Assembly (NCBI RefSeq): GCF_001613125.1
Contig: NZ_BDBT01000007.1
Span: forward strand, 1 to 64,000
Direction of reading: 5' to 3'
Length of the DNA: 64,000 nt
Source: Nocardia shimofusensis NBRC 100134
GTDB lineage: Bacteria; Actinomycetota; Actinomycetes; Mycobacteriales; Mycobacteriaceae
Made by a program: the position numbers and the translations under genes. This document shows, piece by piece, positions 1 through 36,131 of the stretch (within the stretch, counting starts at the first letter, position 1; each line of letters starts with the position of its first letter). The notes below the pieces were generated by a model. That model worked only from the letters and a program-made list of their open reading frames with translations. It was not told the DNA's origin and did not search any database.

Positions 1-2672
1 CCGAGACCTGGGACGGGTACACGGTGTTCCAGGCCAAGCACAAGGACCGGTTGGAGGCCAAGCCGGCCGACAACGCTGCATGGCTGTGGACCCAGGTCCG
101 CAAGGAGTTGGATGCCTGGGGCAACCCCGGGTCCGATCGTGACCCGGTGCCGAACTATCTGGTGATCGTGACCAATGTGCCGTTGACTCCCACACCGGGG
201 TCCGGCGGGTTCGACACGGTGAACGCCTCCATCCAGACCTACCTGGACCTTCTGGCCGACGGCACCCGTGATGCCAATGATCGCGCTACCGCCGCCCGCA
301 AGCGCAGACAACGGCGGATGAGCCGGCTACGCGCATGGCGGATCTGGGACGGTAACCAGGTCGATGGGCTGATCACCAAGCATCAGAGTGTGCGGCGGGC
401 TTTCGGCGCGTTCCTGACAGTCCCCGACGTGTTCGCGCACCTGGCCGAGTTCACCGACAAACTCCCGCTCCACGAGCTGGAGGGCGGACTGCGTCGCCAC
501 GCTCGGGCGGCGTTGATCGGTGATCGGTCGATCTACTTCGACGAGGCCGGTTCCGGTGGCGGTGAGGGCACCCCCATCGACCAGGTCGCGATCGACCTGC
601 CGATCACGATCGGCCCAGGGGGTGAGCGCCGTACCGTCTTCGGGCACATCCTCGACCGCGCAGACCAGGTCCTCAAACCGCGCATGAGCTCGTGCGAGGG
701 CCCGAAGCATGTGGTGGTGGCCGGTAGCGCGGGCAACGGCAAGACCACGATGTCGCGGTTTCTGGTGCAGGCCTACCGGGCTGCGCTGCTCGACGGCGCC
801 ACCGACCTGGGTCCCGAGCACGAGAGGGTCATCACCGCGACAGAGCGCGCGCTGCGTGATCTGGGCCGCGACGGGCTGCCGAGGTTCCGGCGCTGGCCCA
901 TGCGGATCGATCTCGCCGAATACGCCGAGGAGAAAGGGCTCAGCGAGGACTCGACCCTGCTGCGATGGATCGCCCACAAGGTGTCCGAGCGCTCCAACGT
1001 CGGCACCGTCACCCCCAGTGCGCTGGATTCGTGGATGAAGCAGTGGCCGTGGTTGCTGGTGCTCGACGGTCTCGACGAGGTCACCGAGCCACGTATCCGC
1101 AAGCGCCTCATCCGGCAGATCACCGAATTCGTCAGCGAAGCCGAAGGCGACAACTGCGACCTGCTGGTGGTGGTCACCACACGCCCCACCGGTTATGTGG
1201 AGAACATCGCGCCCACACAGTTCGAACGCATCGACCTGGCCCGCCTCGACATCGACGAAGCCCTCCGGTACGGAATCCACACGACCAAGGTCCGTCTCAA
1301 GGACGATGACGAGAAGATCGAACGCATCGCCAAACAGTTGCGTCGCGCCGCCGACGACGAGTCGCTGCGCCATCTGATGCAGACCCCGCTGCAGGTGTTG
1401 ATCATGACGATCATCGTCGAGGGAGCCGGGCAGCTGGCACCGGACCGCTACAGCCTGTTCTGGGGCTACTACGACACCGTGTTCAAACGCGAACGGCTCA
1501 AGCAGACCACGCTCGCGCTGCTGCTGCAGGAGCATGCCTCCACCATTCTGACCCTGCACCAGCGTGTCGGGTTCGAGTTGCAGGTCCGCAGCGAGTCCGA
1601 CGGTTCGATGGCGTTGATGCGGCCCGAGGAACTCCGCGCTGTCGCCTGGCAGGTGCTCCACGACAGTGGCTTCCGCCCCTCCGATGTCGACGCCGATCTG
1701 CTGGAGCGGATCGTGACGGCCGCGACCGACCGGCTGGTGCTGCTCACGCCGATGTCGCGTGGGCAAGACGGTCTGGGCTTCGATGTGCGGTCGCTGCAGG
1801 AACTGATGGCGGCACGATTCCTGACCACCGGCCCCCTCGACCAGGTCATCGCCCGCCTCGAGGTGACCGCGGCCAACCCGCACTGGCGCAACACCTGGAT
1901 CTTCGCCGCGGGCCACCAATTCGCCGAGCCACAACCCCACCAGCACGAGGCGATCGTCGCACTGGTCGAACGGATCGATCGAGACGCCGCCTACCGGCTC
2001 GGCCGGATCTGCCCGATCGCTCCCGGCCTGGCGTTGGACCTCATCGACGACGGCATGGCCCGATCCCACCCCAAATTCCACAACCGGCTGCTGACCGTCG
2101 CGTTCGGTATCTTCGGCATACCGCGCCTGCCCGACCCGCTCGCCGTGGCCAGGGTCTTGGTCCGCGCAGCCGCCGCCAACGACGACGTACGCACCGTGAT
2201 CGCCGACGCGCTGCGCGACGGTCTCAGCGGCACATCACTCGTGCGTGAGACTACTCTGGCCGTACAGGACCAGATCGCAGCCGCCACCAAGGAATCGGCC
2301 TCCACCCACAACGTCCAAGGGTTGGCCGCCGTCCGCGGCCGGCCCGTCCGAAAATCACTGGAATCGACCCGCGATCAGGCCTGGCAGCAGTACCGCCAAA
2401 CGCTGGCCGACCTCGCCGACTCCCTGCCACACAACGATGTGGTCCAACGAGCCGACCTCGCGATCCGCACCATCGCACAGTCCGGCTCCAACGGCGTCGA
2501 CATCTCACCGGTGATCGAGGCGTTGTGCGATTCCGACACCGCCGAACTGCTCGAGATGGCCCTGGAGAACCTTCTCGGCCACGAACCGGAACTGATGGCG
2601 CTACTGGCGAACTTCGTGCTGCCGATGATCCATCGCGGGCCGGTCGCCGAACTCATCCGCCCCACATCCTGA
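1..2672 (+). CDS. NACHT-type STAND ATPase with nuclease-like N-terminus (5' end outside window)
   Basis: The reading frame is already open at base 3 (ETWDGYTVFQAKHK), so the GTG at 24 is probably internal and the gene starts upstream of the window. The visible N-terminus has the FQAK motif of Mrr/PD-(D/E)xK-type nuclease domains, followed by a strand NYLVIVTNVPLTP. A NACHT module follows: Walker A GSAGNGKTT (about 720-748) and Walker B LLVLDGLDE (about 1052-1078), with VVVTTRPTGY as the sensor region. The C-terminal part (about 1500-2672) is helical and may be the sensing region. Nuclease-NACHT proteins in bacteria include phage-defence (Avs/bNACHT-like) systems, so I infer sensor-triggered DNA cleavage in the cytoplasm. 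Its last 80 codons are duplicated at 6675-6914. Confidence 0.8.
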   Translation, partial: ETWDGYTVFQAKHKDRLEAKPADNAAWLWTQVRKELDAWGNPGSDRDPVPNYLVIVTNVPLTPTPGSGGFDTVNASIQTYLDLLADGTRDANDRATAARKRRQRRMSRLRAWRIWDGNQVDGLITKHQSVRRAFGAFLTVPDVFAHLAEFTDKLPLHELEGGLRRHARAALIGDRSIYFDEAGSGGGEGTPIDQVAIDLPITIGPGGERRTVFGHILDRADQVLKPRMSSCEGPKHVVVAGSAGNGKTTMSRFLVQAYRAALLDGATDLGPEHERVITATERALRDLGRDGLPRFRRWPMRIDLAEYAEEKGLSEDSTLLRWIAHKVSERSNVGTVTPSALDSWMKQWPWLLVLDGLDEVTEPRIRKRLIRQITEFVSEAEGDNCDLLVVVTTRPTGYVENIAPTQFERIDLARLDIDEALRYGIHTTKVRLKDDDEKIERIAKQLRRAADDESLRHLMQTPLQVLIMTIIVEGAGQLAPDRYSLFWGYYDTVFKRERLKQTTLALLLQEHASTILTLHQRVGFELQVRSESDGSMALMRPEELRAVAWQVLHDSGFRPSDVDADLLERIVTAATDRLVLLTPMSRGQDGLGFDVRSLQELMAARFLTTGPLDQVIARLEVTAANPHWRNTWIFAAGHQFAEPQPHQHEAIVALVERIDRDAAYRLGRICPIAPGLALDLIDDGMARSHPKFHNRLLTVAFGIFGIPRLPDPLAVARVLVRAAAANDDVRTVIADALRDGLSGTSLVRETTLAVQDQIAAATKESASTHNVQGLAAVRGRPVRKSLESTRDQAWQQYRQTLADLADSLPHNDVVQRADLAIRTIAQSGSNGVDISPVIEALCDSDTAELLEMALENLLGHEPELMALLANFVLPMIHRGPVAELIRPTS
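2433..2672 (+). repeat. Direct repeat copy A (3' end of the NACHT gene)
   Basis: This 240-bp segment matches 6675-6914 with only scattered substitutions and no frame change. Both copies end with the same codons and the shared string TCCTGAACAG around the stop, after which similarity fades. Confidence 0.85.
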
Positions 2673-5859: not shown

Positions 5860-6198
5860 TCAGGCGGTGCGGCGGGGTGGGATGGAGGCCAGGGCGCGCA
5901 TGGCGTCGGCGCGTGAGATGGGCTGGTCGTCGGACAGGGCGGCCAGTTCGATAGCAGCCCAGTCCCGTAGGAGTTCCGACCAGGTGACGCCGCGGGCTTC
6001 GGCTTCGGCGCGGATTCGTCGATCCAGTTCCAGCGGCATGCGCAGGGACCGGACCACCATCACCTCTTCAGCGTCGGTTTCGGTCAGCACGGGCGGTGCT
6101 TCGGCTGCGGGTACGTCTTCCCAGACCAGGTCCGGGTTGTCCATGAGGGCTTCGACCTGGTCGGGTGTCGGTACCGGGTAGTGCTGCTGTTCGGTCAT
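5860..6198 (-). CDS. Ribbon-helix-helix type antitoxin (BrnA-like)
   Basis: The 112-aa protein starts at ATG 6198; a longer in-frame start exists but this one overlaps the upstream toxin stop (ATGA). Residues about 55-95 (VVRSLRMPLELDRRIRAEAE, then GVTWSELLRDW) follow the ribbon-helix-helix pattern: a beta strand followed by two helices with the linker typical of Arc/CopG-type proteins. In BrnT/BrnA-type modules the second gene encodes the DNA-binding antitoxin, which matches this order. It should neutralise the toxin encoded just upstream and repress the shared promoter. Confidence 0.7.
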   Translation of the reverse strand: MTEQQHYPVPTPDQVEALMDNPDLVWEDVPAAEAPPVLTETDAEEVMVVRSLRMPLELDRRIRAEAEARGVTWSELLRDWAAIELAALSDDQPISRADAMRALASIPPRRTA

Positions 6199-6485
6199 CG
6201 GCGGGTCTCCTCCCACTGCTGAAACTCGGCCAACTCGACCGCGGTCATGTCCCGCGCCGAGGCGATATGCCACTGCCAGGCCGACACCTGGTAGACGCCC
6301 ACTTTCAACGCTCTACCGGAGTTCGTGCGGCCCCATATGGTCAGGATGGACGCGCCGGTGCTGTCACGGCCGCGGCGCGGCCAACGTGGACGTTTCCCGG
6401 TCAGCACCTGCATCACCTCCCACGGCTCGATGCCGCGCAGACGATCCAGAGCCCATTCCGGCCAGTCGTAACCCACACCACGCAT
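6195..6485 (-). CDS. BrnT-like RNase toxin
   Basis: This 96-aa protein resembles BrnT toxins of the RelE superfamily. It has an N-terminal helix (DWPEWALDRLRGIEPWEVMQVL), a central strand IWGRTNSGRALKVGVY, and the C-terminal pattern WHIASARDMTAVELAEF, equivalent to the SARxMtxxE motif of the family. The family cleaves RNA in the cytoplasm. Its stop overlaps the antitoxin start by 4 nt, so the two are translationally coupled. Toxin-first order is typical of BrnTA. There is no clear Shine-Dalgarno site before ATG 6485, so a leaderless transcript is possible. Confidence 0.65.
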   Translation of the reverse strand: MRGVGYDWPEWALDRLRGIEPWEVMQVLTGKRPRWPRRGRDSTGASILTIWGRTNSGRALKVGVYQVSAWQWHIASARDMTAVELAEFQQWEETRR

Positions 6486-6503: not shown

Positions 6504-6674
6504 ACTCGTCGTGCATGGGAGGCCACCTCACAGTCCGGGGCGCGGGCAGTGCCTACGGGCTAGAGGCCCGCGGCGCGGAGCTGGCGGCGGGCTTCAGGTG
6601 GAACCGGGGGCGCCCGCCACGGGTGGTGGCGAGCTGCTGGTCGGGTGTGGTCATCGGTTCGTGCTGATCCGCGC

Positions 6675-6914
6675 AACGGTGTGGTCGAACGAGCCGACCG
6701 GACGATCCGCACCATCGCACAATCCGGCTCCAACGGTGTCGACGTCTCACCGGTGATCGAGGCGTTGTGCGGTTCCGATACCGCCGAACTGCTCGAACTG
6801 GCCCTGGAGAACCTCATCGGCCACGAACCGGAACTGACGGCGCTACTGGCGAACTTCGTGCTGCCGGTGACCCAGCGCGGGCCGGTCGCCGAACTCATCC
6901 GCCCCGCGTCCTGA
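6675..6914 (+). pseudogene. Truncated second copy of the NACHT 3' end (repeat copy B)
   Basis: This segment encodes NGVVERADRTIRTIAQSG through PVAELIRPAS in an open frame ending at TGA 6914. It is nearly identical to the last 80 codons of the NACHT gene. No ATPase domain precedes it, so it is a remnant of a paralogous copy or of a duplication event. The frame is intact, which suggests the event is recent. Confidence 0.8.
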
Positions 6915-7042
6915 ACAGGCCAGCGACACGGCGTTGACACCGCTGCGTCGCCGCATGGAGGACATACGGCCGATCGCCGTGTAGGAACCACTCCCCTTTC
7001 GTGTCGCCGAGCGTGTGGCCGGCTGGATTGAGTGCTGAGCCT

Positions 7043-8399: not shown

Positions 8400-9647
8400 T
8401 CAGGGCATTCCGGTGCGGCCGGGTGGCGGCACCACAGGCATCGGTTCGGTGACCGTCCATTCCAGCAACCGTGCTGATTGCCGTTGGTAGTGAGCACGTT
8501 TCGCCGACTTCCGCCGCTCGTAGAGCTCCTGCCCGGGGAGACCCCAAACTTCGACATAGGTCGGTGGAGTTTCGTCGGTCAGGATGAAATCGGGGAACAC
8601 CGCCGAGGTCACCTCGTCGGTGACATCGGCGTCGTAGACCAGGGGTTTGACGAAGCTGCGTCCGGCGGCGATCAACGCATCCGCCATCCGAGCCTCATAG
8701 GACGAATCAGCCGGGATGTAGGTGGTGTTGGTCAGCATCACCGCCGCATCCACCGCCCGCGCGAACCCGCCCGGACTGCGCTCGACGTAGAACAGCATGA
8801 TCCGGCGCCCACCCGCACGGGCGGCGGCCTCCGACATCGCGTTGCGGTAGGAGCGACGCAGCCGCGCATCGAGCCTGTCACTGACGAACACCTGCCGTCC
8901 AGGGCTCTGCTGCGCCAGCTGATACCGCCACCCGGTCTTGCGGGCCTCGTGCACCGCTTTGAGCTCACCGAGGATGAACCCCCGCCGAATCCGATCCGGG
9001 TGGTCGGGGCGCAGCGAGTCCATGAATGCATCGAACGATGCCAGGTTCGCCTGCGCCCGGTCCGGCCGATACGGCGGCACCACATACACCACCGACCGCG
9101 CTGGTTGCCCGTTGATCGTGGTCCCCTCGAGCGCAGACGCCATCGCGGCCGTGACATGCCGCCAACCGCGGCTACGCGTGCTCGCAGTCCAGGACGCCAA
9201 ACCGGCTGTTTCCCAGCAGTAGTGGACCAGCCCCAGCAGCCCGAGGGAGCGGCGTCCCAGCCCCGGGTAGGTCGCCGCGTCCACCCGCTCCCCGTGCTCG
9301 CCCGGTTGGCTGACCAGTGGGGCCGCGAACCGGATCGACGTCCCGGTCTCGGTTTCGGTGATCGCCGACGCGCACCTGCCGCGTCCGCTCATCTGCGGGT
9401 CGATCCTGAAGAACGCGCACTCCGGATGGTGGGCGGGACCACCGCCTGGCCAGCAGGCAAGAAAATGGCGCCCCGCTTGCGTGGAGCGGGTCACCAACGC
9501 CAACCCCGGCTGCCGACACAAACACCGCGCCGATTTGTTCGCCCGGGCGTCGGCCAGCAACCGCACGTGCCCGTCTGGGTCGGCACGCACCTCGCTCAGC
9601 CGCACCGTCTTCCCGTCCAACCGCACCCAATCGACGTACTCGGCCAC
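8400..9647 (-). CDS. DUF1173-like protein of mobile elements
   Basis: GTG 9647 is chosen because GGAGAGG lies just upstream; it gives 415 aa. The frame remains open further upstream. The N-terminal part has a Cys/His set (CLCRQPG, then HHPEC) that could bind zinc, as in the DUF1173 family found on integrative and conjugative elements. The C-terminal part contains FPDFILTD, then TYVEVWGL, an arrangement (D, then E in a beta strand) like PD-(D/E)xK nucleases. Biochemical function is unproven. The gene heads a minus-strand group with the two small frames downstream. Confidence 0.6.
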   Translation of the reverse strand: MAEYVDWVRLDGKTVRLSEVRADPDGHVRLLADARANKSARCLCRQPGLALVTRSTQAGRHFLACWPGGGPAHHPECAFFRIDPQMSGRGRCASAITETETGTSIRFAAPLVSQPGEHGERVDAATYPGLGRRSLGLLGLVHYCWETAGLASWTASTRSRGWRHVTAAMASALEGTTINGQPARSVVYVVPPYRPDRAQANLASFDAFMDSLRPDHPDRIRRGFILGELKAVHEARKTGWRYQLAQQSPGRQVFVSDRLDARLRRSYRNAMSEAAARAGGRRIMLFYVERSPGGFARAVDAAVMLTNTTYIPADSSYEARMADALIAAGRSFVKPLVYDADVTDEVTSAVFPDFILTDETPPTYVEVWGLPGQELYERRKSAKRAHYQRQSARLLEWTVTEPMPVVPPPGRTGMP

Positions 9648-10035
9648 GACATCCTCTCCCCCCAGGCGGCCGCCGCGAACACGCACCGCCCTGCCTCCCA
9701 CGGTAGCGCCGGGCGGCGACATCTCACCCGAGATCCAGCGGCCTCGTCGGGTACGGGCGGTCGCGCACGCACCTCCGGTAGCCCACGGGTGGGTGCGCAT
9801 CCGTCGGGATGGCATCGAGAGTGGCTCTCGGCGCCGCCCCGAGAAGCGGACGCGGCTATTGGCCGCGGGTTCGACCATCAGCCGCTCGCCACGGCCGCTC
9901 GCGCCATCGCGGCGGGCTGCGGTTGCTCAGCGCCGTCGTCGCGAGCCCACCGCGAATACCCGGAAGGAACTGCCCCCACGCGACAGCGGGCCGGAAAGGG
10001 TGTCCCGGCCCGTCGTCGCGTGTCGCGCTGCTATG
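9648..10035. other. Intergenic stretch upstream of the DUF1173-like gene
   Basis: It holds the plus-strand ISL3 vestige at about 9877-9970. Apart from that and the putative start region of the DUF1173-like gene, nothing else is recognised. Confidence 0.45.
9877..9970 (+). pseudogene. ISL3-family transposase vestige 2 (opposite orientation)
   Basis: The plus strand encodes FDHQPLATAARAIAAGCG, and the DNA follows the [17 protein letters not shown] coding segment of the relic at about 11430-11560 base by base with few differences. Only this short piece survives. Confidence 0.5.
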
Positions 10036-11343: not shown

Positions 11344-12325
11344 TCAGTCACGCAACCGCCAATCAGCGCCTGGCGAAATGATCATGCCACCCGCGCTTTC
11401 GGTGCCTCCCCGAGAAGCGAGTGCAGTCAGGGCCGCGGGCCGTCGTGCGGCGGGAGACCGCGGGTGTCGAGGACGGTGTTGAGCAGCCGCACACCGAGCG
11501 CGGTGGCGCGGGCGGCCACCGCGAGTGGCTGGTGGTCGGCCAGGTCCAGCGCCTGCCCAGCATCGACTGTGTGCGGCGACCACCTTCTCCGCCGAGCGGA
11601 CCAGTCCATGCCACAGATGCCAGCGGTCGCTGACCTGCATCGAGCTGGGCAGGGCCCGGCGGATGGCTTCGGCGTAGGTGGGGTGATCCATCGCGGACAA
11701 CGATCTCGATACCGGGCCGGTCACGCAACCACGCCTCGAGGGTCTCGGTCTTCCGGTCACCGAGGACGTCGATTCGCTCGTGGGTGACCGCATCGATCAG
11801 GACTGTGCCGTAGCGGTGGCTGCGACGCAGCGCGAAGTCGTCCACGCTCACCACACGAGGAACCGGTCGGACCGGAAGCGGGATTCGTAGCAGCATGCGC
11901 ACCGCAGTGTGGCGGGACATCGTCACGGGCAGTGCGGCCAGCAGCCGGACCGCAGCCCGCCCTGCCAACTCCCGGGTCACCGCCTGCACCTGGTTGGTCA
12001 GCCGGATGGTGCGTCGCTGGTAGCGTGCGAGCACACCGGGGACCTGCTCACGGAACGTCTTGCAGCACCATGGTGTGGCGCAGGTGAGCCGCCGGACCCG
12101 CACCCCGACGACGACCAGGCGGCCGTCGATCGGCAGGTCCGCAACCCTCCGATAGTGATAGCTGTGGACCCTCACCGACCCGGCCCCACACCGCGGGCAT
12201 CCGGCCGGGCCAGGAGCCGTCCGAGCCGACACCACAATCCGCCCGCCCTCATCTGCTACGCCTTCGACGACCAGCGGCGATAGCCCCGAAAACATGAGTC
12301 CAGCAGCATCATTCACCTCGACCAC
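11344..12325 (-). pseudogene. ISL3-family transposase, frameshifted and truncated
   Basis: The N-terminal 210 or so residues are intact from 12325. They include the zinc-finger region (CPRCGAGS, then CCKTFREQ) and the start of the DDE domain ([11 protein letters not shown], then [10 protein letters not shown]). Near 11680 the frame shifts and continues as [20 protein letters not shown], then shifts again near 11570 to [17 protein letters not shown]. The last third of a normal 400-plus-residue ISL3 transposase is missing, so the element is dead. A candidate terminal inverted repeat is at 12354-12380. Confidence 0.85.
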
Positions 12326-12559: not shown

Positions 12560-13318
12560 GTGCTCGCTGAGTTCCCGTGGATTGGCATAGAGATGGCGTA
12601 CGCCGTCTGCTGCCTCTCAGGGGACGGAAGCGACTACGCCCATCCGGATATGCGTGGTCAGCTTCCTATGGACGCCCAGTCGGCGTCCACCGCCTACACG
12701 GCGGTGTATGCGGACTGGCCTGCGAGCAACGCCCACACGCGAAATGGAGTGACCACATTGGGTGTTGAGTACTCGGGTTCGCGCATCGAGATCGGTGCGG
12801 ACACGCAGTTTGAGAGCGGCGACGGCATCCCGTTCCACGACAGGGAGCCAAGAAGCTCAAGCGCGAGTGCGCTCTTCGGTGGCCTCTACAACCGCGCCAC
12901 CGCCAAACCTCCGGCTCGCCGCATACTGGCACCGATCTTCGACTTCCCTGTCGACCTTGACCTACCTGGCAGCGCCACCGAACTGCACTGCACGTCGAGC
13001 ACTGTCGACGAGCGCGGCCGAGTATCAGCGGGACGCCTTCTGCCACACCTCAATTGGGTCCCTGGCCAGCGCTGCGCATTCGCGATACACGAGCGCTCAG
13101 TGATCAAAGTCTCCACATCACACAAAGGTCGCTCCATCAAGGTCGGCGGACATATTCACCTCCCTCGCAGCATCCGAAACCACTGCCGAATTAGCTCCGG
13201 CGACCGTGTGCTGCTGGCTGCCTCATCGGCACACGCACACCTCGTCGTCTATCCGCCGCACACCCTGTCAGCGATCCTCACCAACCACCGCCCCGAACTC
13301 TGGAGCCTTACGCGATGA
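12560..13318 (+). CDS. Tandem AbrB/SpoVT-like protein coupled to the integrase
   Basis: The last 100 or so residues contain two copies of a swapped-hairpin AbrB-like pattern. The first runs ERGRVSAGRLLPHLNWVPG through CAFAIHE. The second runs KVGGHIHLPRSIRNHCRISSG through DRVLLAAS and LVVYPP. Such domains bind DNA as dimers. The stop overlaps the integrase start by 4 nt (ATGA). GTG 12560 is preceded by GAGG and is used here, but the N-terminal 100 residues are unrecognised and an internal start is possible. It probably acts as a regulator or recombination-directing partner of the integrase; that role is inferred. Confidence 0.55.
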   Translation: MLAEFPWIGIEMAYAVCCLSGDGSDYAHPDMRGQLPMDAQSASTAYTAVYADWPASNAHTRNGVTTLGVEYSGSRIEIGADTQFESGDGIPFHDREPRSSSASALFGGLYNRATAKPPARRILAPIFDFPVDLDLPGSATELHCTSSTVDERGRVSAGRLLPHLNWVPGQRCAFAIHERSVIKVSTSHKGRSIKVGGHIHLPRSIRNHCRISSGDRVLLAASSAHAHLVVYPPHTLSAILTNHRPELWSLTR

Positions 13319-14358
13319 CCAGCCCCGAAGCCGCCGAGGAACTCGCGCAGGCACTCTCCGCGGTCGGTCTCACGGTCATCCGCATGGGCTCGACACAAGC
13401 ACCGCCCGCCATACCGACCTTCAGCGAATACATCGCCAAAGCGTCAACCGCGGCAACGCCAGTCCAACGCGAGTCCTACCGCACGTACTGGAGAGTCACC
13501 GAACAGGCCTGGGCCGCTCGACGCCTCAACGAGGTGACCCCCATCGAGATCAGCGGCCTGATGAACGACCACAAACAACGAGCGGTCAGGCGGTCCAACT
13601 GGCGCGAGGGCTGCGGAGCCGCCAGAAACCTGCTCCACGCCATTCGATGCCTCTACAGCTACGCCGAACAGGATGGTCTCATCCGACCATCAGCCAACCC
13701 TGCACGCAAAGTCAAGATGCCGCGCCGACTCGAGAGTCCACGGCATGCGCTCACCCCTGAGCAGATCAGCGACCTCGGACGCGTTGCCTGCGAGACCGGC
13801 GACGACGTCGAGCTTGATGCGCTCATCGTACGTCTACACATCGAAACCGCATGCCGCCGTGGCGCAGTACTGCGATTGAGCATCAACGACCTGAGCACCG
13901 ACGACAGCACTGTCCGCCTCCACCACAAAGGAGACGTGATCACCTGGCATCCCATCACCCCCATGCTGATGCGTCGGCTTCACAAACACTTCGAGCACCG
14001 AGGCGGCACATCCGCCGAAGCCGGCGACCAGGTATTGCGCACTCGCAGGGGCAACCCGATCGGCGACCGACGCTACGACAATCTTCACGAACGTTTCCAC
14101 ACCTACCTCCCATGGGCGGCAGCCAAACAAGTGACATCCCACTGGCTGCGTCACACGACCTTGACCTTTGTGGAACGGGAGTTCGGAGAGGCGGTTGCGC
14201 GTCGCTACGCCGCCCACCGCGATCCAGGAACGACAGCGACCCCGACATACACGAAAGCATCACTTCCGGAGTGCGCCCTCGCCCTCGAGGCAGTCACGGG
14301 GCAACCGCATCCACTCGCCCGCAGGGATGTCTGGAATGCCGCCGGATCCCTGGAATGA
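13315..14358 (+). CDS. Tyrosine recombinase/integrase
   Basis: The 347-aa protein has the complete catalytic set of tyrosine recombinases: Arg181/182 in ETACRRGA, Lys205 in HHKGD, His276-x-x-Arg279 in SHWLRHTT, His301 in AAHRDPG, and the nucleophile Tyr312 in PTYTKAS. Residues about 30-125 form the helical core-binding domain. It should cut and rejoin DNA at a specific site, most simply mobilising this island. It is coupled to the AbrB-like gene upstream, and the next genes downstream are of a different character. No tRNA gene or obvious attachment core is visible beside it. Confidence 0.85.
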   Translation: MTSPEAAEELAQALSAVGLTVIRMGSTQAPPAIPTFSEYIAKASTAATPVQRESYRTYWRVTEQAWAARRLNEVTPIEISGLMNDHKQRAVRRSNWREGCGAARNLLHAIRCLYSYAEQDGLIRPSANPARKVKMPRRLESPRHALTPEQISDLGRVACETGDDVELDALIVRLHIETACRRGAVLRLSINDLSTDDSTVRLHHKGDVITWHPITPMLMRRLHKHFEHRGGTSAEAGDQVLRTRRGNPIGDRRYDNLHERFHTYLPWAAAKQVTSHWLRHTTLTFVEREFGEAVARRYAAHRDPGTTATPTYTKASLPECALALEAVTGQPHPLARRDVWNAAGSLE

Positions 14359-18590: not shown

Positions 18591-21500
18591 TCACTCCGCC
18601 AGTTCGAGCCAGAAGTCGCGCAATATCGAATGGGGTCCGGTGAACACCGGGGGCCGCACGACGGGCAGGATGTCGTCGAGCAGCGGTAGGTCGCCGAGGT
18701 CGACCGCGCGCAGTTTGGCCAGTTCCAGGGTGTCGCGCACCACCATGGCGAGTACGTCGGCAGTCCAGCCGCGTCCGGGGTCCGGCGGCACCGCGAGCAG
18801 TATCGCCTGGGGCGCCTTGGCGTCGGGCCGGTCGAAGTGGAACGACACACCGGTCAGCTCGGACTCCACGGGAACGGCGTCCGGGCCGGATTTGGTGGAC
18901 GACAGGCCGTAGGAGCCGGGGAGCACTTCGACCCACTCGTCGAACACGATCCCGGCGACGCGTCCGTTGTCGGGCACCGGGAACGGCCGATGGGCCACGA
19001 GATGTTCCCGCGCCGCGGGTCGTTCGGTGGGTGCGAAGGGCGCCCCGATCCACGGCCCACCGGTGGGGAATTGTGTGACCGACAGCGGGCACGGGCGCCC
19101 GGATCGGGCGCCGGCCAGCATGAGGGTCTCGTGCCAGGCGCAGGTGACCGGACGGATGGTGGCGAAGCGACGGGTCCAGTCCGCGATCGCGGATTCGCGG
19201 ACACCGGGTGGGCCGGGCGGGATCGTGGCGGCGTCGAGCAGGGTGGCGATAGGCAGGCCGGTGCCGAGGAAGTCGCCGAGCGCCAGGGTGACCGCACCGA
19301 GCCAGCCCGCATCGTCGGTTCGGGCGACGGCTCGGGCTAGCCGTTGCGGGTCGGCGTCGATGCCCAGTGCCATCCGGTTCTGCGCCGAGGTGACGGTAGC
19401 GACGAAGGCGCTCAGTCGTCCGCGCGCTTCGGCCATGTCCGGGGCGGGGTTGTCGGTGCTCTCCCCGGTCAGGTGCGCGAGTGTCAGCGCCCGAGCGCCG
19501 GCGAGCAACCGCTGCACGCGCCGGGTGATCTCGCGCAGTTCGAGCCAGTCGCCGTCGTAGTCGATCGTGTCGGCGTCGAACCCGGCGAGTTGCGCGACCC
19601 GGAGGTCGAGTCGGCGGTGGGTGTCGGTCGCAGCGTCCAGCGCGAAACCCAAAGCACTGAACTCCAGGTCGTCGGCGGTGAAGGTGAACGTCGTCGCACT
19701 ACCGGCCGGGCGGGCGGACAGCCGCCAGGTGGCTGCCGGTCCGAGGACTGCGGCGACCCAGGCGTCGACGCGTGGTTCGAGGTCGGCGAAGGCGTCGCGT
19801 GCCCAGCCCGCGGGCAGTGCCGGGTCGGCGGGCAGGATCGCCGCGGCCCGGTGGGTGATGGCGTTGCCCCGGTGCGGAGTGCGCAGGACGTCGAAGCGGT
19901 CCGGTACGTCGGTTCCGCGGCCGAGAGTGTCCGCGGCGATACCCGCGCGCATCGGGTTGCCGCCTACCAGTTGGTGCACGCTTTCAGCCAGCAGGAGATC
20001 GCCGACGGCGTCGAGTGCGTCGACGAGGTCGTCGAGCATGGGACGCGCCCGCTCGTCCGGGATCGCCAGGCCGGCTGCGGCGCGGGCGAGGGCCATGCCG
20101 TCGACGACGTTGGCCGGGGCGATCGCTTCGGCGCTGCGTCCCCACAGCTCGGAATTCTCCTGCCCGTCGGCGGGCTCGGGGACGACCGGCGTGGGGAAGG
20201 TCCGGCGGTAGAAGTCCTTCAGCGGGTCGAGGCCGGCGTCGCGGAGTGCGCGCTCGAAGCGGTAGCCCAGCAGCGCGCCCAGGTTCTGGCCGCGCCGGAC
20301 CCCGGCGAGCAGCCATCGCGCTGTGCGGGCCCGTCGTGAGGTCAGGTCGACGGCCAGTGCGCCGCCGCGATCGTGGGCCAGGAAGCCCGAGCGCAGCACC
20401 GCGGCGGTCGCGGCGTGGTGTTGTGAGGGGGCGTGGATGTAGCCGTCGCTGACGGTGTGTGTGGACGGGTTGCGGTGCAGGTTCTCGACCCACCCGTACC
20501 CGCCGATCCGGACGCCGGTCACGCCCGCCGCACGGGTGTCGGCGAGTCGTCTGGTGGCCAGCGAGGTCGCCCAGGCGTCCCAGCGGTGCGAGTAGACGTC
20601 GAGAATTTCCATCAACAGTGGCAGGTACCGGTCGGCGGGGAGTTGTTCCAGCGCCGCCAAGGCGGCCAGCACGGCGGGTGCACCGGCCCGTTTGCCGCGG
20701 GCATGGTCGCGTTTGGTGGCCAGGTCCTGCGGTGGCGTGTCGGGAAAGGACACCTTCTGGATGATGAGGTCGTCGATCAGTCCCGGGATGTCGAGCGCGT
20801 CGCGCAACGGTTCGCCGGCCTCGTCGAACAGGTCGGTGCGTGGATTGTCCTTCGAGGTCGTCGCGGGGATGAAGTCTTCCTCGCCGGAGGTGCCGAACAG
20901 GTCGGGTTCGCGCTGGTTCTGTTCACCGTGCAGGACCGGGATCGGCCAGTTCTGGTCGTAGGCGGTGAGGCGCTGCTCGAATTCGGCGTCGGTGATGCCT
21001 TCTTCGAGGACGGCGAGGGCGTCGGTGAGATGTCGACGGCTGCGACCGAAGAACTGCGGGTAGCTCGCGGCGTTGGGGGTCAGGCGTCGAGCGACTTCGG
21101 AGAAGTCGGCCGGGGTGCTGTCGGAGGTCCATGCCAGGTGGCTGATCAGTGGTGTCGGCATCGACCAGCGCAGGCCGGAGCGGAAGTCGATGCCGCCGAG
21201 GGAGAGCACCGGTCCCGGTGCGCGGCGGGTGAGCTCGAGTCCGTCGAGGGTCTCGGTCATCTTGTCGAATTTCTCCAGTGCTCCGGCGGGTGAGAGCACC
21301 CGGCGGATGACGAGGTTGTTCGACACGGGCAGTCGGGTCATGACGTCGACGGCGAGCCGGTCGGCGGGTCGGCCGTCGGTCACCCGCGGGATCCATCCCG
21401 AGATGAGCGCGGCCCGCCAGTGATCACGCAGCCGCAGCAGCCACGGCGCCAGCAGCGCGTCGGCGGTGTCGTGGCGGTGGGATCGCCATTCGTCGACGGT

Positions 21501-23858
21501 GGACACCGGCAGGATGCCGTACGGTTGGCGCCCGACCCGCAGGGTCGGCAGCGGTCCGCGGCTGCGCACGTGGTCGACCAGGTGATCGCGGATCCTGATC
21601 CAGGTCTGCCCGCTCGGTTGCGTGAATTCGGTGTCGAGGGTGCCGAGTGCGTCGGTGGCGGCACGAACGAATCCGAAGGCCAACGCGTCCCAGCTCAGCA
21701 GCGACAGTCCGGCGACCGCGCCGTCGGAGTCGGTGGTGCCGCCGTCGCAGTCGGCCAGGAATTCGGCGCCGTCGAGACCGAGGGAGGTGACCGTCCTGGC
21801 GGCGTCGGTGCCTTCCCGCAGCGACGTGACGTCGGCGCGGGGGGCGTGTGCGGAGGGTCGCGCCGACCACGAGGTCCGGGTCTCGGGGGTGTTGTTGGTG
21901 GGGGTGCCCGCGCTGAGGAATCCGAGTCCGGCGCCGAACGCATGGCCCCGCAGGGTGTTGCGCAGTCGTGTCGCCGCTTCTGCGGGTGCGTGTTCGCTGA
22001 CGCCTACGACGAACAGTTCGTCGAGATGGTCGATCCCCTCCGGCAGGGTCAGGGTGATGCCCATGCCGGCGACGACGGCGGCGGGGAAGTCGACGGCCCA
22101 GGCTGCGTGGTCGTGGTCGGCGGCGGCTTCGTCGGCCTCGAGCAGTCCCAACGGCAGCGGATCGGGGATGTCGGTGCCGGTGCTGTCCACGACGAGCGCG
22201 CCGTCGACGAATCCGAGGAACCGCCATCGGGACGGCATGGTCGTCACCTGGGGTGCCCGACGTTGCCGAGGATCACGCAAGTCCGGCTCCGGCATGCCGG
22301 GGCGGGTACGGCGGGTCGCCCAGGCGGCTCGCTGTGGGCTCAGAGTGGTCAGCAGGTCCTGCCATGCGCGGTCGCCGGGGTCGGCCCAGTAGGTGCGCGC
22401 CAGTTCGCGTTCGTCGGCAGTGAGTTCGGGGGCGAAGGCATCGATGTGGATGTCGTCGGGATAGACGCGTACCTGGATGGTCCGCTCGGCGATGCCGTTG
22501 GCGGCGGCGATCAATGCCGCGGCGGCGGGGTCACCGTAGGCGGCGGTGGCGATGGACTCGAGGGTGTCGCCGGGCGCGACGGTGTGTGTGCGGGTGATCG
22601 GGCGGGGGTGCGGCTCGCGCGCGGGGATCACCAGCACCTGCCCGATCTGGATGAGATGGGGGTTCACCAGGCCGTTGGCTCGGGCGATCAGCGGGAAGAG
22701 GGCGGCATCACCGTAGAACCGCAGGGCCAGCGCCGACAGTGTGTCTCCGGCGACGACGGTGTGATGCTGTACGGGTGTCTCGGGTTCGGGCAGCACGAGC
22801 ACTTGGCCGGTCCGGATGTCGTCGGGGAGGAATTTCGTTTCGATGCGGACCGGCAGCAGGGCGATCGGGTCGACGGCTGTGGGCGCGATCTCGGGGACGA
22901 CGAGCACTGTGCCGACGGGGATGCGGGTCGGGTCGTCGATCCGATTGGCGTCGGCGATCAGCGGCCACAGGTCGGCGTTGTCGTAGAAGCGCTGGGCGAG
23001 CTCGGACAAGGTCTCGTTCGGACGCATGGTGTGGGTGCGTGTCGGTGCCGCGGCTCGCGCCGGAATGGTGAGGACGTGTCCCACCTGGAGTGAGCGGGGG
23101 TCGACGACTCCGTTGGCTTGGGCGATCAGCGGCCACAGGTCGGCGTTGCCGTAGAAGCGCCGGGCGAGCTCGGACAAGGTCTCGTTCGGACGGACAGTGT
23201 GGGTGCGGGCTGGTGGCCGGCCGGCTTCGGGGATGACGATTTCCGTGCCGACGGGAATGCGGGTGGGGTCTTGGATCTGGTTGGCTCGGGCGATCAGCGG
23301 CCAGAGCTCGCCGTTGCCGTAGTAGTGCTGCGCGAGTTCGAACAACGTCTCGTCGGGGCGCATAGTGTGTCGCTGTCGTGGGAACAGAGGTGTGCCTGCG
23401 TCGAGCGAGGCCGCGAGTTCGGCGGTCGTGGCTTCGAGCTGGGTGCGCAGTTCCCGCGCCCGCACACGCCGTGCGGTTTGGGCAGCTTCGGCGTCGCGCA
23501 GGATGTCTTGTGCGCTGTTCCCGTGCGGGACGTTGGTCGGGTTCGAGGCCGCCCACTGCCGAGTCCGGTGCAGGGACGCTTCCTTGTCGTCGATTTCGGC
23601 CAGTACGGTGCCGTAGTGCAGCCGGATACGGTCGGCGCCGCGCCGCAAGGCGAACACCCGCGCCGGATCCGCGGTCGGTGGGTGCGGGGGCGGTACGAGG
23701 TCGGGGATGGTCAGCAGCTGGCCGACGACGATGAAGTCCGGGTCCGGGAGGCCGTTGGCTCGCGCGATGACCGGGAACAGGTCGGCGTCGCCGTAGAAGC
23801 GCAGGGCCAACGCCGACAGCGTGTCGTCGGGCTCGACCCGGTAGTGCGTGGGCATCAT
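18591..23858 (-). CDS. Giant 1755-aa multi-LysM protein
   Basis: ATG 23858 with AAGGAG upstream starts a protein whose first 456 residues hold LysM modules at about 5-52, 164-211, 219-267, 275-322 and 366-412, plus a shortened sixth at 424-456. Each shows the D/ETLxxLAxRFYGxAxLxPxIAxAN pattern. LysM modules usually bind peptidoglycan or chitin-like glycans. Residues 61-160 contain a predicted coiled coil. A conserved domain of unknown type then spans the rest. Its opening PVRIETKFL (336-344) seems separated from its continuation IQVRVYPDDIHIDAF (461-475) by LysM modules 5-6. There is no signal peptide, so any export must use another route. Proteins of this size and N-terminal arrangement suggest a scaffold or structural role. 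Confidence 0.7.
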   Translation of the reverse strand: MMPTHYRVEPDDTLSALALRFYGDADLFPVIARANGLPDPDFIVVGQLLTIPDLVPPPHPPTADPARVFALRRGADRIRLHYGTVLAEIDDKEASLHRTRQWAASNPTNVPHGNSAQDILRDAEAAQTARRVRARELRTQLEATTAELAASLDAGTPLFPRQRHTMRPDETLFELAQHYYGNGELWPLIARANQIQDPTRIPVGTEIVIPEAGRPPARTHTVRPNETLSELARRFYGNADLWPLIAQANGVVDPRSLQVGHVLTIPARAAAPTRTHTMRPNETLSELAQRFYDNADLWPLIADANRIDDPTRIPVGTVLVVPEIAPTAVDPIALLPVRIETKFLPDDIRTGQVLVLPEPETPVQHHTVVAGDTLSALALRFYGDAALFPLIARANGLVNPHLIQIGQVLVIPAREPHPRPITRTHTVAPGDTLESIATAAYGDPAAAALIAAANGIAERTIQVRVYPDDIHIDAFAPELTADERELARTYWADPGDRAWQDLLTTLSPQRAAWATRRTRPGMPEPDLRDPRQRRAPQVTTMPSRWRFLGFVDGALVVDSTGTDIPDPLPLGLLEADEAAADHDHAAWAVDFPAAVVAGMGITLTLPEGIDHLDELFVVGVSEHAPAEAATRLRNTLRGHAFGAGLGFLSAGTPTNNTPETRTSWSARPSAHAPRADVTSLREGTDAARTVTSLGLDGAEFLADCDGGTTDSDGAVAGLSLLSWDALAFGFVRAATDALGTLDTEFTQPSGQTWIRIRDHLVDHVRSRGPLPTLRVGRQPYGILPVSTVDEWRSHRHDTADALLAPWLLRLRDHWRAALISGWIPRVTDGRPADRLAVDVMTRLPVSNNLVIRRVLSPAGALEKFDKMTETLDGLELTRRAPGPVLSLGGIDFRSGLRWSMPTPLISHLAWTSDSTPADFSEVARRLTPNAASYPQFFGRSRRHLTDALAVLEEGITDAEFEQRLTAYDQNWPIPVLHGEQNQREPDLFGTSGEEDFIPATTSKDNPRTDLFDEAGEPLRDALDIPGLIDDLIIQKVSFPDTPPQDLATKRDHARGKRAGAPAVLAALAALEQLPADRYLPLLMEILDVYSHRWDAWATSLATRRLADTRAAGVTGVRIGGYGWVENLHRNPSTHTVSDGYIHAPSQHHAATAAVLRSGFLAHDRGGALAVDLTSRRARTARWLLAGVRRGQNLGALLGYRFERALRDAGLDPLKDFYRRTFPTPVVPEPADGQENSELWGRSAEAIAPANVVDGMALARAAAGLAIPDERARPMLDDLVDALDAVGDLLLAESVHQLVGGNPMRAGIAADTLGRGTDVPDRFDVLRTPHRGNAITHRAAAILPADPALPAGWARDAFADLEPRVDAWVAAVLGPAATWRLSARPAGSATTFTFTADDLEFSALGFALDAATDTHRRLDLRVAQLAGFDADTIDYDGDWLELREITRRVQRLLAGARALTLAHLTGESTDNPAPDMAEARGRLSAFVATVTSAQNRMALGIDADPQRLARAVARTDDAGWLGAVTLALGDFLGTGLPIATLLDAATIPPGPPGVRESAIADWTRRFATIRPVTCAWHETLMLAGARSGRPCPLSVTQFPTGGPWIGAPFAPTERPAAREHLVAHRPFPVPDNGRVAGIVFDEWVEVLPGSYGLSSTKSGPDAVPVESELTGVSFHFDRPDAKAPQAILLAVPPDPGRGWTADVLAMVVRDTLELAKLRAVDLGDLPLLDDILPVVRPPVFTGPHSILRDFWLELAE
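22491..23846 (-). repeat. LysM repeat block
   Basis: Six LysM modules lie within the giant gene. The third and fourth (about 22900-23205) remain strongly similar at DNA level, indicating recent duplication. The fifth resembles the first more closely. Confidence 0.75.
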
Positions 23859-34504: not shown

Positions 34505-34793
34505 GACAGAACTTTCTGGTCGGTGGAGACTGTGCCTCTGAGACGCCCCGGCGCCGACCGTTGTGACGTGATGTGGGGTAGGTCACAACGATGCCGTGTG
34601 ACGATTGCCCTCCATGGCACCTGAAACGCTCTACTTCACAGCACCGACCAGTCGGATCGAATCGCATCGTCGGTACTGCATCACGTTATGCCGCAGCGGT
34701 TTTGATTCCATCGAGCGGATTCCGCAAATCCGTGGACACCACACCCTGTCACCCCCGACACTAGAGCCAACTGCTATCAAAGGGGTGACTCAC

Positions 34794-36131
34794 GTGGTCG
34801 GAACACACACGGTGATGGCCGGGGAAACGCTGCCTATGTTGGCATTACGCTTCCTCGGAGACGCCGAGCTATACCGGCTCATAGCTACTGCCGGCGGGAT
34901 CACCGAACCCGACGATGTCGGCGCGGGACAACGGCTCATCATCCCCGGCTACAGGAAGTACGAGGTCGTCGCAGGAGAGACGTTGTCGGAGCTGGCGACG
35001 CGCTACTACGGAGACGCCTCCTTCGCCCGGTTCATCGCCGCCGCCAGCGGCATCACCGAACCCGACACCGTCGCCGCGGGGCAGCAGCTCATCGTTCCCG
35101 ATCTCATGCGGTACGAGACTCTCGCGGGAGACACGTTGTCGGGGCTGGCGACCCGCTACTACGGAGACGCCTCCCTCGCTCCGCTCATCGCCGACGCCAA
35201 CCGCATCGTCGAACCCGCAGCAGGTCGGATCCTGGCGATATTCCTCGGACGAAGCGACGGGTTCGGTCTGTCGATCGTGGATCGCAACGAGGACGACCCG
35301 CGCATGTGGTACTACCGATTCCGGACCGATGCAATCGGCTGGAATCCCGGTGTCAACGTCCTGCTACCCGATGATTATCACACCAGCGGACACACCTATC
35401 CCGTCCTCTATCTGTTCCACGGCGGCGGTGACCAGGATTTCCGCACCTTCGACTCTCTGGGCATCCGCGAATGGACCGCCGGAAAGCCGATCATCGTCGT
35501 CATGCCCGATGGCGGCCGAGCGGGCTGGTATTCCAACCCGACCGGCTCCTTCGTGGGTCCGCGCAATTGGGAGACATTCCATATCGCCCAGCTTCTCCCG
35601 TGGATCGAAGCGAACTTCCGAGCCTATGCCGAGTACGACGGTCGCGCGGTCGCCGGGTTCTCGATGGGCGGCTTCGGCGCGCTGAAGTACACGGCCAAGT
35701 TTCACGGTCAATTCGCCTCGGTCAGCAGCCATTCCGGCCCGGCGAGTCTGCGTCGCGACTTCGGCCTCGTCGTGCATTGGGCGAATCTGACCTCGGCGGC
35801 GCTGGAGCTGGGCGGCGCCACGGTCTATGGGGCACCGTTCTGGAACCAGGCCAGGGTCAGCGCGGACAACCCGATCGAACGGATCGACAGCTACCACGAC
35901 AAGCGGATATTCCTCGTCGCCGGCACCAGCCCGGATCCGATCTACTGGTTCGACAGTGCGAACGAAACCCAGGTGCTGGCCGGCCAGCGGGAATTTCGTC
36001 GACGCCTCACCGATGCCGGTATCCCGCACGAGGCGCACGAGGTGCCCGGTGGTCACGTATTCCGGCCCGAACTCTTCGCTGTCGACCTGGAAGGAATCAT
36101 CGCCCGCCTGCGAGCCGCGGCACCCGTGTGA
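34794..36131 (+). CDS. LysM-esterase fusion (antigen-85/esterase D-like)
   Basis: GTG 34794 is chosen because AAAGGGG lies 8 nt upstream, giving 445 aa. Three LysM modules come first (about residues 4-50, 54-100 and 104-145, the third running into a linker). An esterase family (PF00756-like) domain follows, with LYLFHGGGD, the nucleophile in AGFSMGGFGALKY and the His in VPGGHVF. No signal peptide is visible at this start, which is odd for a glycan-binding enzyme. The LysM modules are of the same RYYGDA...LIADAN type as in the giant operon protein 12 kb away. It probably acts on envelope esters if exported. Confidence 0.75.
   Translation: MVGTHTVMAGETLPMLALRFLGDAELYRLIATAGGITEPDDVGAGQRLIIPGYRKYEVVAGETLSELATRYYGDASFARFIAAASGITEPDTVAAGQQLIVPDLMRYETLAGDTLSGLATRYYGDASLAPLIADANRIVEPAAGRILAIFLGRSDGFGLSIVDRNEDDPRMWYYRFRTDAIGWNPGVNVLLPDDYHTSGHTYPVLYLFHGGGDQDFRTFDSLGIREWTAGKPIIVVMPDGGRAGWYSNPTGSFVGPRNWETFHIAQLLPWIEANFRAYAEYDGRAVAGFSMGGFGALKYTAKFHGQFASVSSHSGPASLRRDFGLVVHWANLTSAALELGGATVYGAPFWNQARVSADNPIERIDSYHDKRIFLVAGTSPDPIYWFDSANETQVLAGQREFRRRLTDAGIPHEAHEVPGGHVFRPELFAVDLEGIIARLRAAAPV

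What the first reader, a model, noticed from the sequence alone, without database searches (positions are those of the whole stretch)
1..2672. Nuclease-NACHT protein as likely phage-defence gene
A Mrr-like FQAK motif precedes a NACHT module (GSAGNGKTT and LLVLDGLDE) and a long helical C-terminus, inside a mobile island. This architecture is used by NLR-like antiphage proteins. The C-terminal sensor region is unlike repeats I recognise.
Basis: partly seen in the sequence, partly recalled or inferred. Interest (0 to 1): 0.6.

Follow-up and report, generated by a model that had tools for sequence, protein, structure and literature searches.

The report
Nuclease-NACHT immune receptor, probable phage defence
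This is a bacterial relative of animal NLR immune receptors with a predicted DNA-cutting domain at the front, most likely an anti-phage suicide protein; the general design is already known, and this particular family seems untested.

Summary
[quoted passage not shown] Homologues supply the missing ~58 N-terminal residues. The AlphaFold model of a 942-aa homologue shows a PD-(D/E)xK-type nuclease (best match Avs4's nuclease, Z 8.7), a full NACHT module (NLRC4/NLRP3/NOD2, Z 17-18), and a short, fast-evolving helical C-terminus. Nuclease and NTPase motifs are near-invariant in 80 rows. No neighbour gene recurs in more than 5 of 88 loci. Relatives are patchy, on plasmids and chromosomes of several phyla. 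Distant enterobacterial members sit between gpA and gpQ of P2-like prophages, a locus others showed to carry anti-phage genes. PADLOC gives only weak partial hits, and Pfam's NCH1 domain, which marks the known nuclease-NACHT proteins bNACHT25/32, was not detected. Best reading: a nuclease-armed bacterial NLR that oligomerises on infection and cuts DNA; a new member of a known kind. The 5' end is absent from the assembly and a broken second copy lies 4 kb away, so whether this copy is intact is open.

The parts
3..2672 (+). nuclease-NACHT gene, 889 codons present, 5' end (about 58 codons by homology) beyond the contig edge
   Evidence: homologues begin about 58 residues earlier
3..422 (+). C-terminal part of the PD-(D/E)xK-type nuclease domain (approximate boundary, by alignment to homologues)
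27..38 (+). FQAK: QxK catalytic-type motif (Q 79 of 80, K 80 of 80 rows)
570..1187 (+). NACHT nucleotide-binding domain (approximate)
723..749 (+). Walker A, GSAGNGKTT
1053..1079 (+). Walker B, LLVLDGLDE
1188..1787 (+). HD1 and winged-helix parts of the NACHT module (approximate; holds the conserved TPLQ and RLV motifs)
1788..2303 (+). HD2-like helical part (approximate)
   Evidence: most NLRP3, NOD2 and NLRC4 matches extend to residues 780-846 of the 942-aa homologue
2304..2669 (+). short C-terminal helical region, fastest-evolving part, proposed sensor (approximate)
   Evidence: residues 761-889 are 55, 36, 40% identical against 76-78% for residues 211-400, three closest homologues
6657..6911 (+). 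relic of the 3' end of a second copy (79% aa; 91% nt over 257 bp at 6674-6930)
11363..12325 (-). ISL3-type transposase, apparently broken (mobile surroundings)
13315..14358 (+). phage-type integrase (mobile surroundings)
   Evidence: Pfam Phage_integrase E 8e-12

Best explanation
A single-gene, NLR-type immune receptor. In uninfected cells the NACHT module (NBD-HD1-WHD-HD2) holds the protein inactive and ADP-bound, with the nuclease idle. A cue of infection is sensed by the fast-evolving C-terminal helical region together with HD2. ADP-ATP exchange then opens the module and the protein oligomerises as animal NLRs do. This brings the N-terminal PD-(D/E)xK (Mrr/Avs4-type) nucleases together, and they cut DNA (phage, host or both), stopping phage production at the cost of the cell. 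Shown here by computation: domain order, folds, conservation of the motifs, lack of a widely recurring partner gene, mobile and prophage-hotspot distribution of relatives. Inferred: nucleotide switching, oligomerisation, DNA as substrate, the sensor's place, abortive outcome. Not shown: that this copy is intact or active.
For: AlphaFold of the 942-aa homologue, pLDDT 85.4, pTM 0.80; residues 211-821 match NLRC4, NLRP3 and NOD2, Z 17-18, about 420-500 residues aligned, Foldseek E 3.5e-9. N-terminal domain alone pLDDT 93.5; best match Avs4 nuclease Z 8.7, then AspBHI 7.6, MspJI 7.2, AF1548 7.1, FokI 6.1, LmuA 5.9. In the 80-row alignment Q68 79/80, K70 80/80, acidic residue 41 79/79, Walker A lysine 80/80, first Walker B Asp 79/79, its Glu 79/80, L023 numbering (rows were picked by a pattern fixing positions 13-14 and 37-41, so those are partly by construction, Q68 and K70 are not). 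P2-like prophages: E. coli 3 of 3 hits (two distinct proteins) beside gpA, 2 of these also beside gpQ (one gpQ incomplete), the third cut by the record end; IMG/VR 3 of 9 loci flanked by both, 1 more by gpA with the contig starting inside the gene. That locus is an anti-phage hotspot with tested systems (PMC9122126 passages). Within 7 kb on plasmids: Abi family protein, type I RM methylase subunit, type ISP RM, Lit-family exclusion protein in 4 of 6 loci fetched (searches show none so labelled; the six are the five best hits and the Klebsiella one). PADLOC families at E<=1e-10: 116 among 123 neighbour proteins against 31 among 123 control proteins. bNACHT25/32 need their PD-(D/E)XK active site for defence and degrade DNA on infection (PMC12169576 passages).
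Against: No experiment on any member was found. PADLOC models match only weakly and in part (best E 3e-6 among 46 members, P-loop or N-terminal stretch). The one PADLOC scan of window genes (10 proteins at 7.3-29.5 kb) found none, so this copy is not in a classical defence island. For the nuclease, Foldseek gave nothing below E 0.02, no PDB sequence matches its profile, Pfam Mrr_cat stays below cut-off, and the aligner's own note says Z under 8 may be a common arrangement; only the Avs4 entry stands above that. The gene's own 5' end is missing from the assembly, and decayed copies occur next to it and in G130. The neighbour count compares model families, not proteins (one protein can match many); the control was fixed stretches of one genus and itself rang for mad3, PD-T4-6 and others.
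Confidence: 0.74

Rival explanations
1. Same machine, but the target is plasmids or other mobile elements rather than phages: a weapon in competition between mobile elements.
For: 28 plasmid records match (4 over at least 80% of the query), no phage record matches the window protein; the two closest plasmid copies are on linear plasmids.
Against: The closest functional precedents act on phage (bNACHT25/32; Avs4, recalled), and distant members sit in the P2-like anti-phage hotspot. Plasmid carriage is common for anti-phage genes too (recalled).
Confidence: 0.12
2. A modification-dependent (type IV-like) restriction enzyme: the nuclease recognises modified DNA directly, and the NTPase only regulates it.
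For: Second and third structural matches of the nuclease are AspBHI (titled modification-dependent) and MspJI; Mrr-like motif.
Against: No SRA or PUA domain listed in Pfam scans, and helicase-named hits are weak and confined to the P-loop; the NTPase module has an NLR-type fold.
Confidence: 0.06
3. In this genome the gene is a dead remnant: 5' truncated at a mobile-element junction, like the neighbouring 3' relic.
For: N-terminal piece absent from an assembly rated 100% complete; a 3' relic beside it (26 of 32 changed bases in residue-changing codons over 255 bases, the first codons of which look unrelated); G130 copy split over three frames.
Against: 889 codons without a stop, normal codon pattern; contig ends often fall in repeats (recalled), so the 5' end may simply be unassembled.
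Confidence: 0.25
4. A non-immune STAND regulator (for example of development) that uses the nuclease fold for DNA binding only.
For: Many STAND proteins of actinomycetes are regulators (recalled).
Against: Catalytic-type residues are near-invariant; patchy distribution, 9 of 150 genomes of the genus including this one and some weak matches; plasmid and prophage locations.
Confidence: 0.05

Closest known systems
bNACHT25 / bNACHT32 (bacterial NLR-related proteins, clade 6)
   Same: N-terminal PD-(D/E)XK DNase and central NACHT module with a C-terminal region (PMC12169576 passages)
   Different: They carry an NCH1 C-terminal domain; Pfam NCH1 (PF22728) was not detected in this family (name). Direct sequence comparison not made: no bNACHT25 sequence was obtained.
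Avs4 (AVAST type 4)
   Same: Its N-terminal nuclease is the closest solved structure (8dgf, Z 8.7, 135 residues); effector-STAND-sensor order (recalled)
   Different: Avs4 chain is 1534 residues with a large repeat sensor (recalled); here about 950 residues, NTPase best matched by animal NLRs, no repeat family detected
Animal NLRs (NLRC4, NLRP3, NOD2)
   Same: NBD-HD1-WHD-HD2 fold, Z 17-18
   Different: Nuclease instead of CARD or PYD, no leucine-rich repeats; 10-14% identity
Mrr-NACHT fusion noted in 2007 (gi:68548712)
   Same: Mrr-type nuclease fused to a NACHT ATPase (PMC1913061 passages)
   Different: Only mentioned as a fusion in the passage seen; that sequence was not obtained, so whether it belongs to this family is unknown
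bNACHT01-type protein of Vibrio phage 10N.286.49.B11_PE003 (labelled so in the record)
   Same: NACHT core, 22% identity over 416 alignment columns, E 1e-5
   Different: 596 residues, no nuclease domain aligned

Membership tests
Bacterial NLR-related (NACHT) proteins | Central NACHT STAND NTPase with Walker A and B | tested here: met
   Pfam NPHP3_N in 36 and NACHT in 30 of 46 members at E<=0.01 (several of those seen singly lie below the curated cut-off); motifs; fold Z 17-18
Bacterial NLR-related (NACHT) proteins | N-terminal effector domain | tested here: met
   Homologues. The window copy shows only the C-terminal part of it
Bacterial NLR-related (NACHT) proteins | C-terminal sensing domain | tested here: inconclusive
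   Helical, fastest-evolving region present; sensing not testable
Bacterial NLR-related (NACHT) proteins | Protects against phage | not testable with these tools
   Needs plaque assays
bNACHT clade 6 (bNACHT25/32) | PD-(D/E)XK effector | tested here: met
   Fold and motif level:
bNACHT clade 6 (bNACHT25/32) | NCH1 C-terminal domain (PF22728) | tested here: not met
   Absent from the complete list of 18 Pfam families matched by 46 members at E<=0.01, from the window protein at E<=1, from 7 other homologues at E<=1 and from 7 proteins at E<=5, 5 of them not in the 46. PF22728 is named NCH1. Similarity below HMMER's filters is not excluded
AVAST Avs4 | Mrr-type N-terminal nuclease | tested here: met
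   Z 8.7, rmsd 3.3, 135 residues; fold level only, no sequence match
AVAST Avs4 | Long C-terminal repeat sensor (recalled) | tested here: not met
   No repeat family in the Pfam scans; about 120 residues follow HD2 in the 942-aa model
PD-(D/E)xK nuclease superfamily | alpha-beta-beta-beta-alpha-beta core with acidic residue and QxK at the strands | tested here: met
   but Pfam Mrr_cat is only a weak hit (best E 0.0056, 1 of 46)
PD-(D/E)xK nuclease superfamily | DNA cleavage | not testable with these tools
   Needs assay
Type IV (modification-dependent) restriction enzymes | Separate modified-base recognition domain | tested here: inconclusive
   None listed by Pfam

The most novel reading that the evidence does not exclude
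A separate, cross-phylum clade of nuclease-NLRs, outside the described bNACHT25/32 and AVAST groups. It joins an Avs4-type nuclease to an animal-like NACHT-HD2 scaffold and senses infection through HD2 plus a small C-terminal bundle, without repeats. It is shared between actinomycete plasmids and the defence hotspot of P2-like phages. It would be a minimal bacterial NLR in which to find the trigger and the structural path from sensing to DNA cutting.
Probability: 0.35. Interest if true: 0.6.

Novelty: new member of a known kind. Interest (0 to 1): 0.42.

Why it matters
If true, bacterial NLR defence would include a large family, spread over Actinomycetota, Pseudomonadota, Bacillota, Chloroflexota and others, that the PADLOC library (2023) hits only weakly and so would miss. 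Its compact C-terminus makes it a good case for asking how a NACHT receptor without repeats senses phage. The E. coli prophage members offer a laboratory host in which to test it.

Tried and rejected
Sequence look-ups with the window protein alone gave no PDB match, no phage record and only weak PADLOC and NCBIfam partial hits at the P-loop (NCBIfam was tried with the window protein only). With the Klebsiella member as query two Vibrio phages matched, over 35% of it. A whole-family profile against PDB sequences gave mostly generic P-loop hits and a weak NLRC4 hit at E 0.04 (60 of 169 shown). The N-terminal profile gave none.

I looked for a conserved partner gene with frames of 70 or more residues within 3.5 kb of 88 loci: 57 clusters lie in 3 or more loci, the largest in 5 (25 clusters printed). 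Most of the printed ones join the same Nocardioides-type set or P2 core genes, and some are shadow frames; a general partner was rejected. I looked for other defence genes in the window (10 proteins, 7.3-29.5 kb) and found none.

I tried to obtain a bNACHT25-type reference through its Pfam domain. PF22722 is NA-iREase1, PF22727 NCH2, PF22728 NCH1; none rang in this genome, and none rang in the controls either. So the comparison with clade 6 rests on the NCH1 result only. The primary bNACHT paper (PMC10294775) is not held. The maximum-likelihood tree did not finish; FastTree was used.

In the N-terminal VIA list unrelated folds such as acetyl-CoA carboxylase appear at Z 4-5, so only the top rows were used. 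Rows dropped: of 88 loci parsed, 7 had no N-terminal motif by my pattern: L070 (upstream stop, though it shows DGGRE and QAK), L054, L085, L100 and L107 (no N-terminus in the frame), L109 and L110 (short or broken frames). L106 (no nuclease match) and L037 (324 aa) were also left out. From the 49 rows of 840-1010 aa, L031, L049, L064 and L092 were left out of A2. Of 167 neighbour proteins 123 were scanned, and of 201 control proteins 123; controls are fixed stretches of 17 genomes of the genus (20 asked, 3 not available). Searches show only the first 25 of 116 and of 31 families.
Full report
What is there. Window 3-2672 (+) is an open frame of 889 codons without an internal stop and with a coding-type GC pattern. 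Base 1 of the window is base 1 of contig C7 of the assembly (263,435 bases), so the gene is cut by a contig end. The organism is a Nocardia by inference: a genome of the same genus, G022, has a 703,850-base contig with a family hit, as has Nocardia aurantia RB56.

The missing N-terminus. Homologues of 65-70% identity in genome G036 and on two linear Rhodococcus plasmids are complete and start about 58 residues before the window's first codon. Those residues carry the GxDGGRD/E motif. A homologous N-terminal query finds the window's own piece and otherwise only hits at E 0.17 or worse; a 46-row N-terminal profile finds only window 3-461. The 5' end is therefore either unassembled or lost.

Anatomy. 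The AlphaFold model of the 942-residue Jiangella homologue (L023), built with 46 family members including the window protein, has mean pLDDT 85.4 and pTM 0.80. Residues 211-821 match NLRC4, NLRP3 and NOD2 (Foldseek E down to 3.5e-9; VIA-align Z 17-18 over about 420-500 residues, 10-14% identity): a complete NBD-HD1-WHD-HD2 module. The first 202 residues predicted alone reach pLDDT 93.5, with helix 5-25, strands 30-34, 40-50 and 59-70, helix 79-98 and strand 110-115, the PD-(D/E)xK core. The best structural match is the N-terminal nuclease of Avs4 (8dgf, Z 8.7, rmsd 3.3, 135 residues), then AspBHI, MspJI, AF1548, FokI and LmuA (Z 7.6 to 5.9). Foldseek alone gave no match below E 0.02, and the aligner warns that Z under 8 can be a common arrangement, so the nuclease assignment rests on topology, the Avs4 match and the motifs. 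About 120 residues of helices follow HD2.

Conservation. In an alignment of 80 rows (79 loci and the window) Q68 is kept in 79 of 80, K70 in 80 of 80, an acidic residue at 41 in 79 of 79 (51 Glu, 28 Asp), Walker A lysine in 80 of 80, the first Walker B Asp in 79 of 79 and its Glu in 79 of 80 (L023 numbering). Rows had been chosen with a pattern that fixes positions 13-14 and 37-41, so their conservation is partly by construction; Q68 and K70 were not used. Against the three closest homologues residues 211-400 are 76-78% identical and residues 761-889 55, 36 and 40%, as expected if the C-terminus meets a changing partner.

Spread. In 150 genomes of the genus, 9 (including this one) have any match, some weak. 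Of 72,556 plasmid records 28 match, 4 of them over at least 80% of the query and some over the NTPase only. In GTDB species genomes 79 loci were kept of 232 confirmed stretches: mostly Actinomycetota, also Pseudomonadota, Bacillota, Chloroflexota, Planctomycetota and Acidobacteriota. Outside the actinomycetes complete members are about 1,300 residues, with a longer C-terminus; five actinomycete members are long too. No phage record matches the window protein. FastTree groups the window with G036 and then with the two Rhodococcus plasmid copies, local support 99 for both forks. Among frames within 3.5 kb of 88 loci, no neighbour recurs in more than 5, so it most likely acts alone.

Defence setting. 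The enterobacterial branch (24% identity to the window over 661 columns, E 1e-40; DGGRD and QSK present) is found in 3 of 5,426 complete E. coli genomes, as two distinct protein accessions. In all three the gene stands next to the P2-type replication endonuclease (gpA). In two the portal gene (gpQ) is on the other side, incomplete in one of them, and in the third the record ends there. Of nine IMG/VR loci, three have gpQ and gpA on the two sides and one more has gpA with the contig starting inside the gene; five show neither. The E. coli gene is 36% GC in a 47% GC stretch. Rousset and colleagues describe this gpA-gpQ interval as a hotspot of anti-phage systems and tested cargo systems from it with success (PMC9122126, passages read). 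On plasmids, annotated neighbours within 7 kb include an Abi family protein, a type I restriction methylase subunit, a type ISP restriction enzyme and a Lit-family exclusion protein, while two of the six plasmid loci fetched show none so labelled. Among 123 of 167 neighbour proteins PADLOC models of 116 families match at E<=1e-10 (Jet, AbiE, PD-Lambda-1, pAgo-associated, cyclase and methylases among the first 25), against 31 families among 123 of 201 proteins from fixed stretches of genomes of the genus (mad3, PD-T4-6 and others). One protein can match many models, and the control covers one genus, so this is supporting, not decisive.

Local setting. The window copy has no PADLOC match at E<=0.001 among ten window proteins scanned. 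A 257-base stretch at 6674-6930 is 91% identical to the gene's 3' end, the relic of a second copy. An ISL3-type transposase in overlapping frames and a phage-type integrase follow. In G130 the gene is split over three frames. So copies do decay, and the state of this one is open.

Comparison with the known. A nuclease fused to a NACHT ATPase was noted in 2007 (PMC1913061, passages). bNACHT25 and bNACHT32 have a PD-(D/E)XK DNase, a NACHT module and an NCH1 domain; an active-site mutation abolishes defence, and infection with MS2 leads to DNA degradation (PMC12169576, passages). Mrr-type nucleases also replace TIR in STAND proteins of the P4 hotspot (PMC9122126, passage). This family shares the plan. 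It lacks a detectable NCH1 domain (46 members at E<=0.01; further proteins at E<=1 to 5) and any detected repeat domain. PADLOC gives only weak partial hits, and NCBIfam none of note for the window protein. A phage gene labelled bNACHT01-type aligns only over the NACHT core at 22%. A 2026 paper reports 31 additional validated systems, 13 with PD-(D/E)XK and 7 with P-loop NTPase domains (PMC13092281, passages); whether one of them is a relative could not be seen. Literature searches for NACHT with nuclease, Mrr, restriction endonuclease, Streptomyces or related terms, and for bNACHT, listed no paper whose title, abstract start or read passages describe this family; most of those papers were seen as listings only, and supplements could not be read.

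Verdict. A real, near-complete gene for a nuclease-armed bacterial NLR, most likely anti-phage by DNA cleavage. A new member of a known kind; the wide spread, the weak fit to the defence models checked, and the P2-hotspot members make it worth testing.

Noticed in passing
window 6657-6911: 3' relic of a second copy of the gene, 91% nt identical over 257 bp; genome G019 also holds a C-terminal-like match alone (44% over 73 residues).
   Followed up: partly
window 5860-6485 (-): Two small overlapping genes that resemble a toxin-antitoxin pair (recalled, BrnTA-like); the 137-aa one had no Pfam hit, the 96-aa one was not scanned.
   Followed up: no
window 8400-9878 (-): DUF1173 protein (E 9e-42), a family of unknown function near the relic.
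   Followed up: no
window 18591-23858 (-) and 34605-36131 (+): Very long protein (1755 aa) with five LysM stretches and Phage_tail_X similarity, and a second protein with LysM-like repeats by eye.
   Followed up: no
L064 (contig of 'Vibrio cholerae strain 35D'): 63.8% GC and groups with Pseudarthrobacter; looks like a foreign contig in that assembly.
   Followed up: partly
L141 7722-9512 (Vibrio phage 10N.286.49.B11_PE003): A 15-kb phage with a PM2-type capsid note carries a gene noted as NLR_like_bNACHT01 in its record.
   Followed up: partly
L013 6827-9691 and 16230-16658: Rhodococcus plasmid pUSK13_2 carries what looks like two copies of the gene in inverted orientation, about 6.5 kb between them, with identical small genes inverted between them.
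   Followed up: no
L004, L011, L012 (G130): Homologue split over three reading frames, a decayed copy in a one-contig genome.
   Followed up: partly
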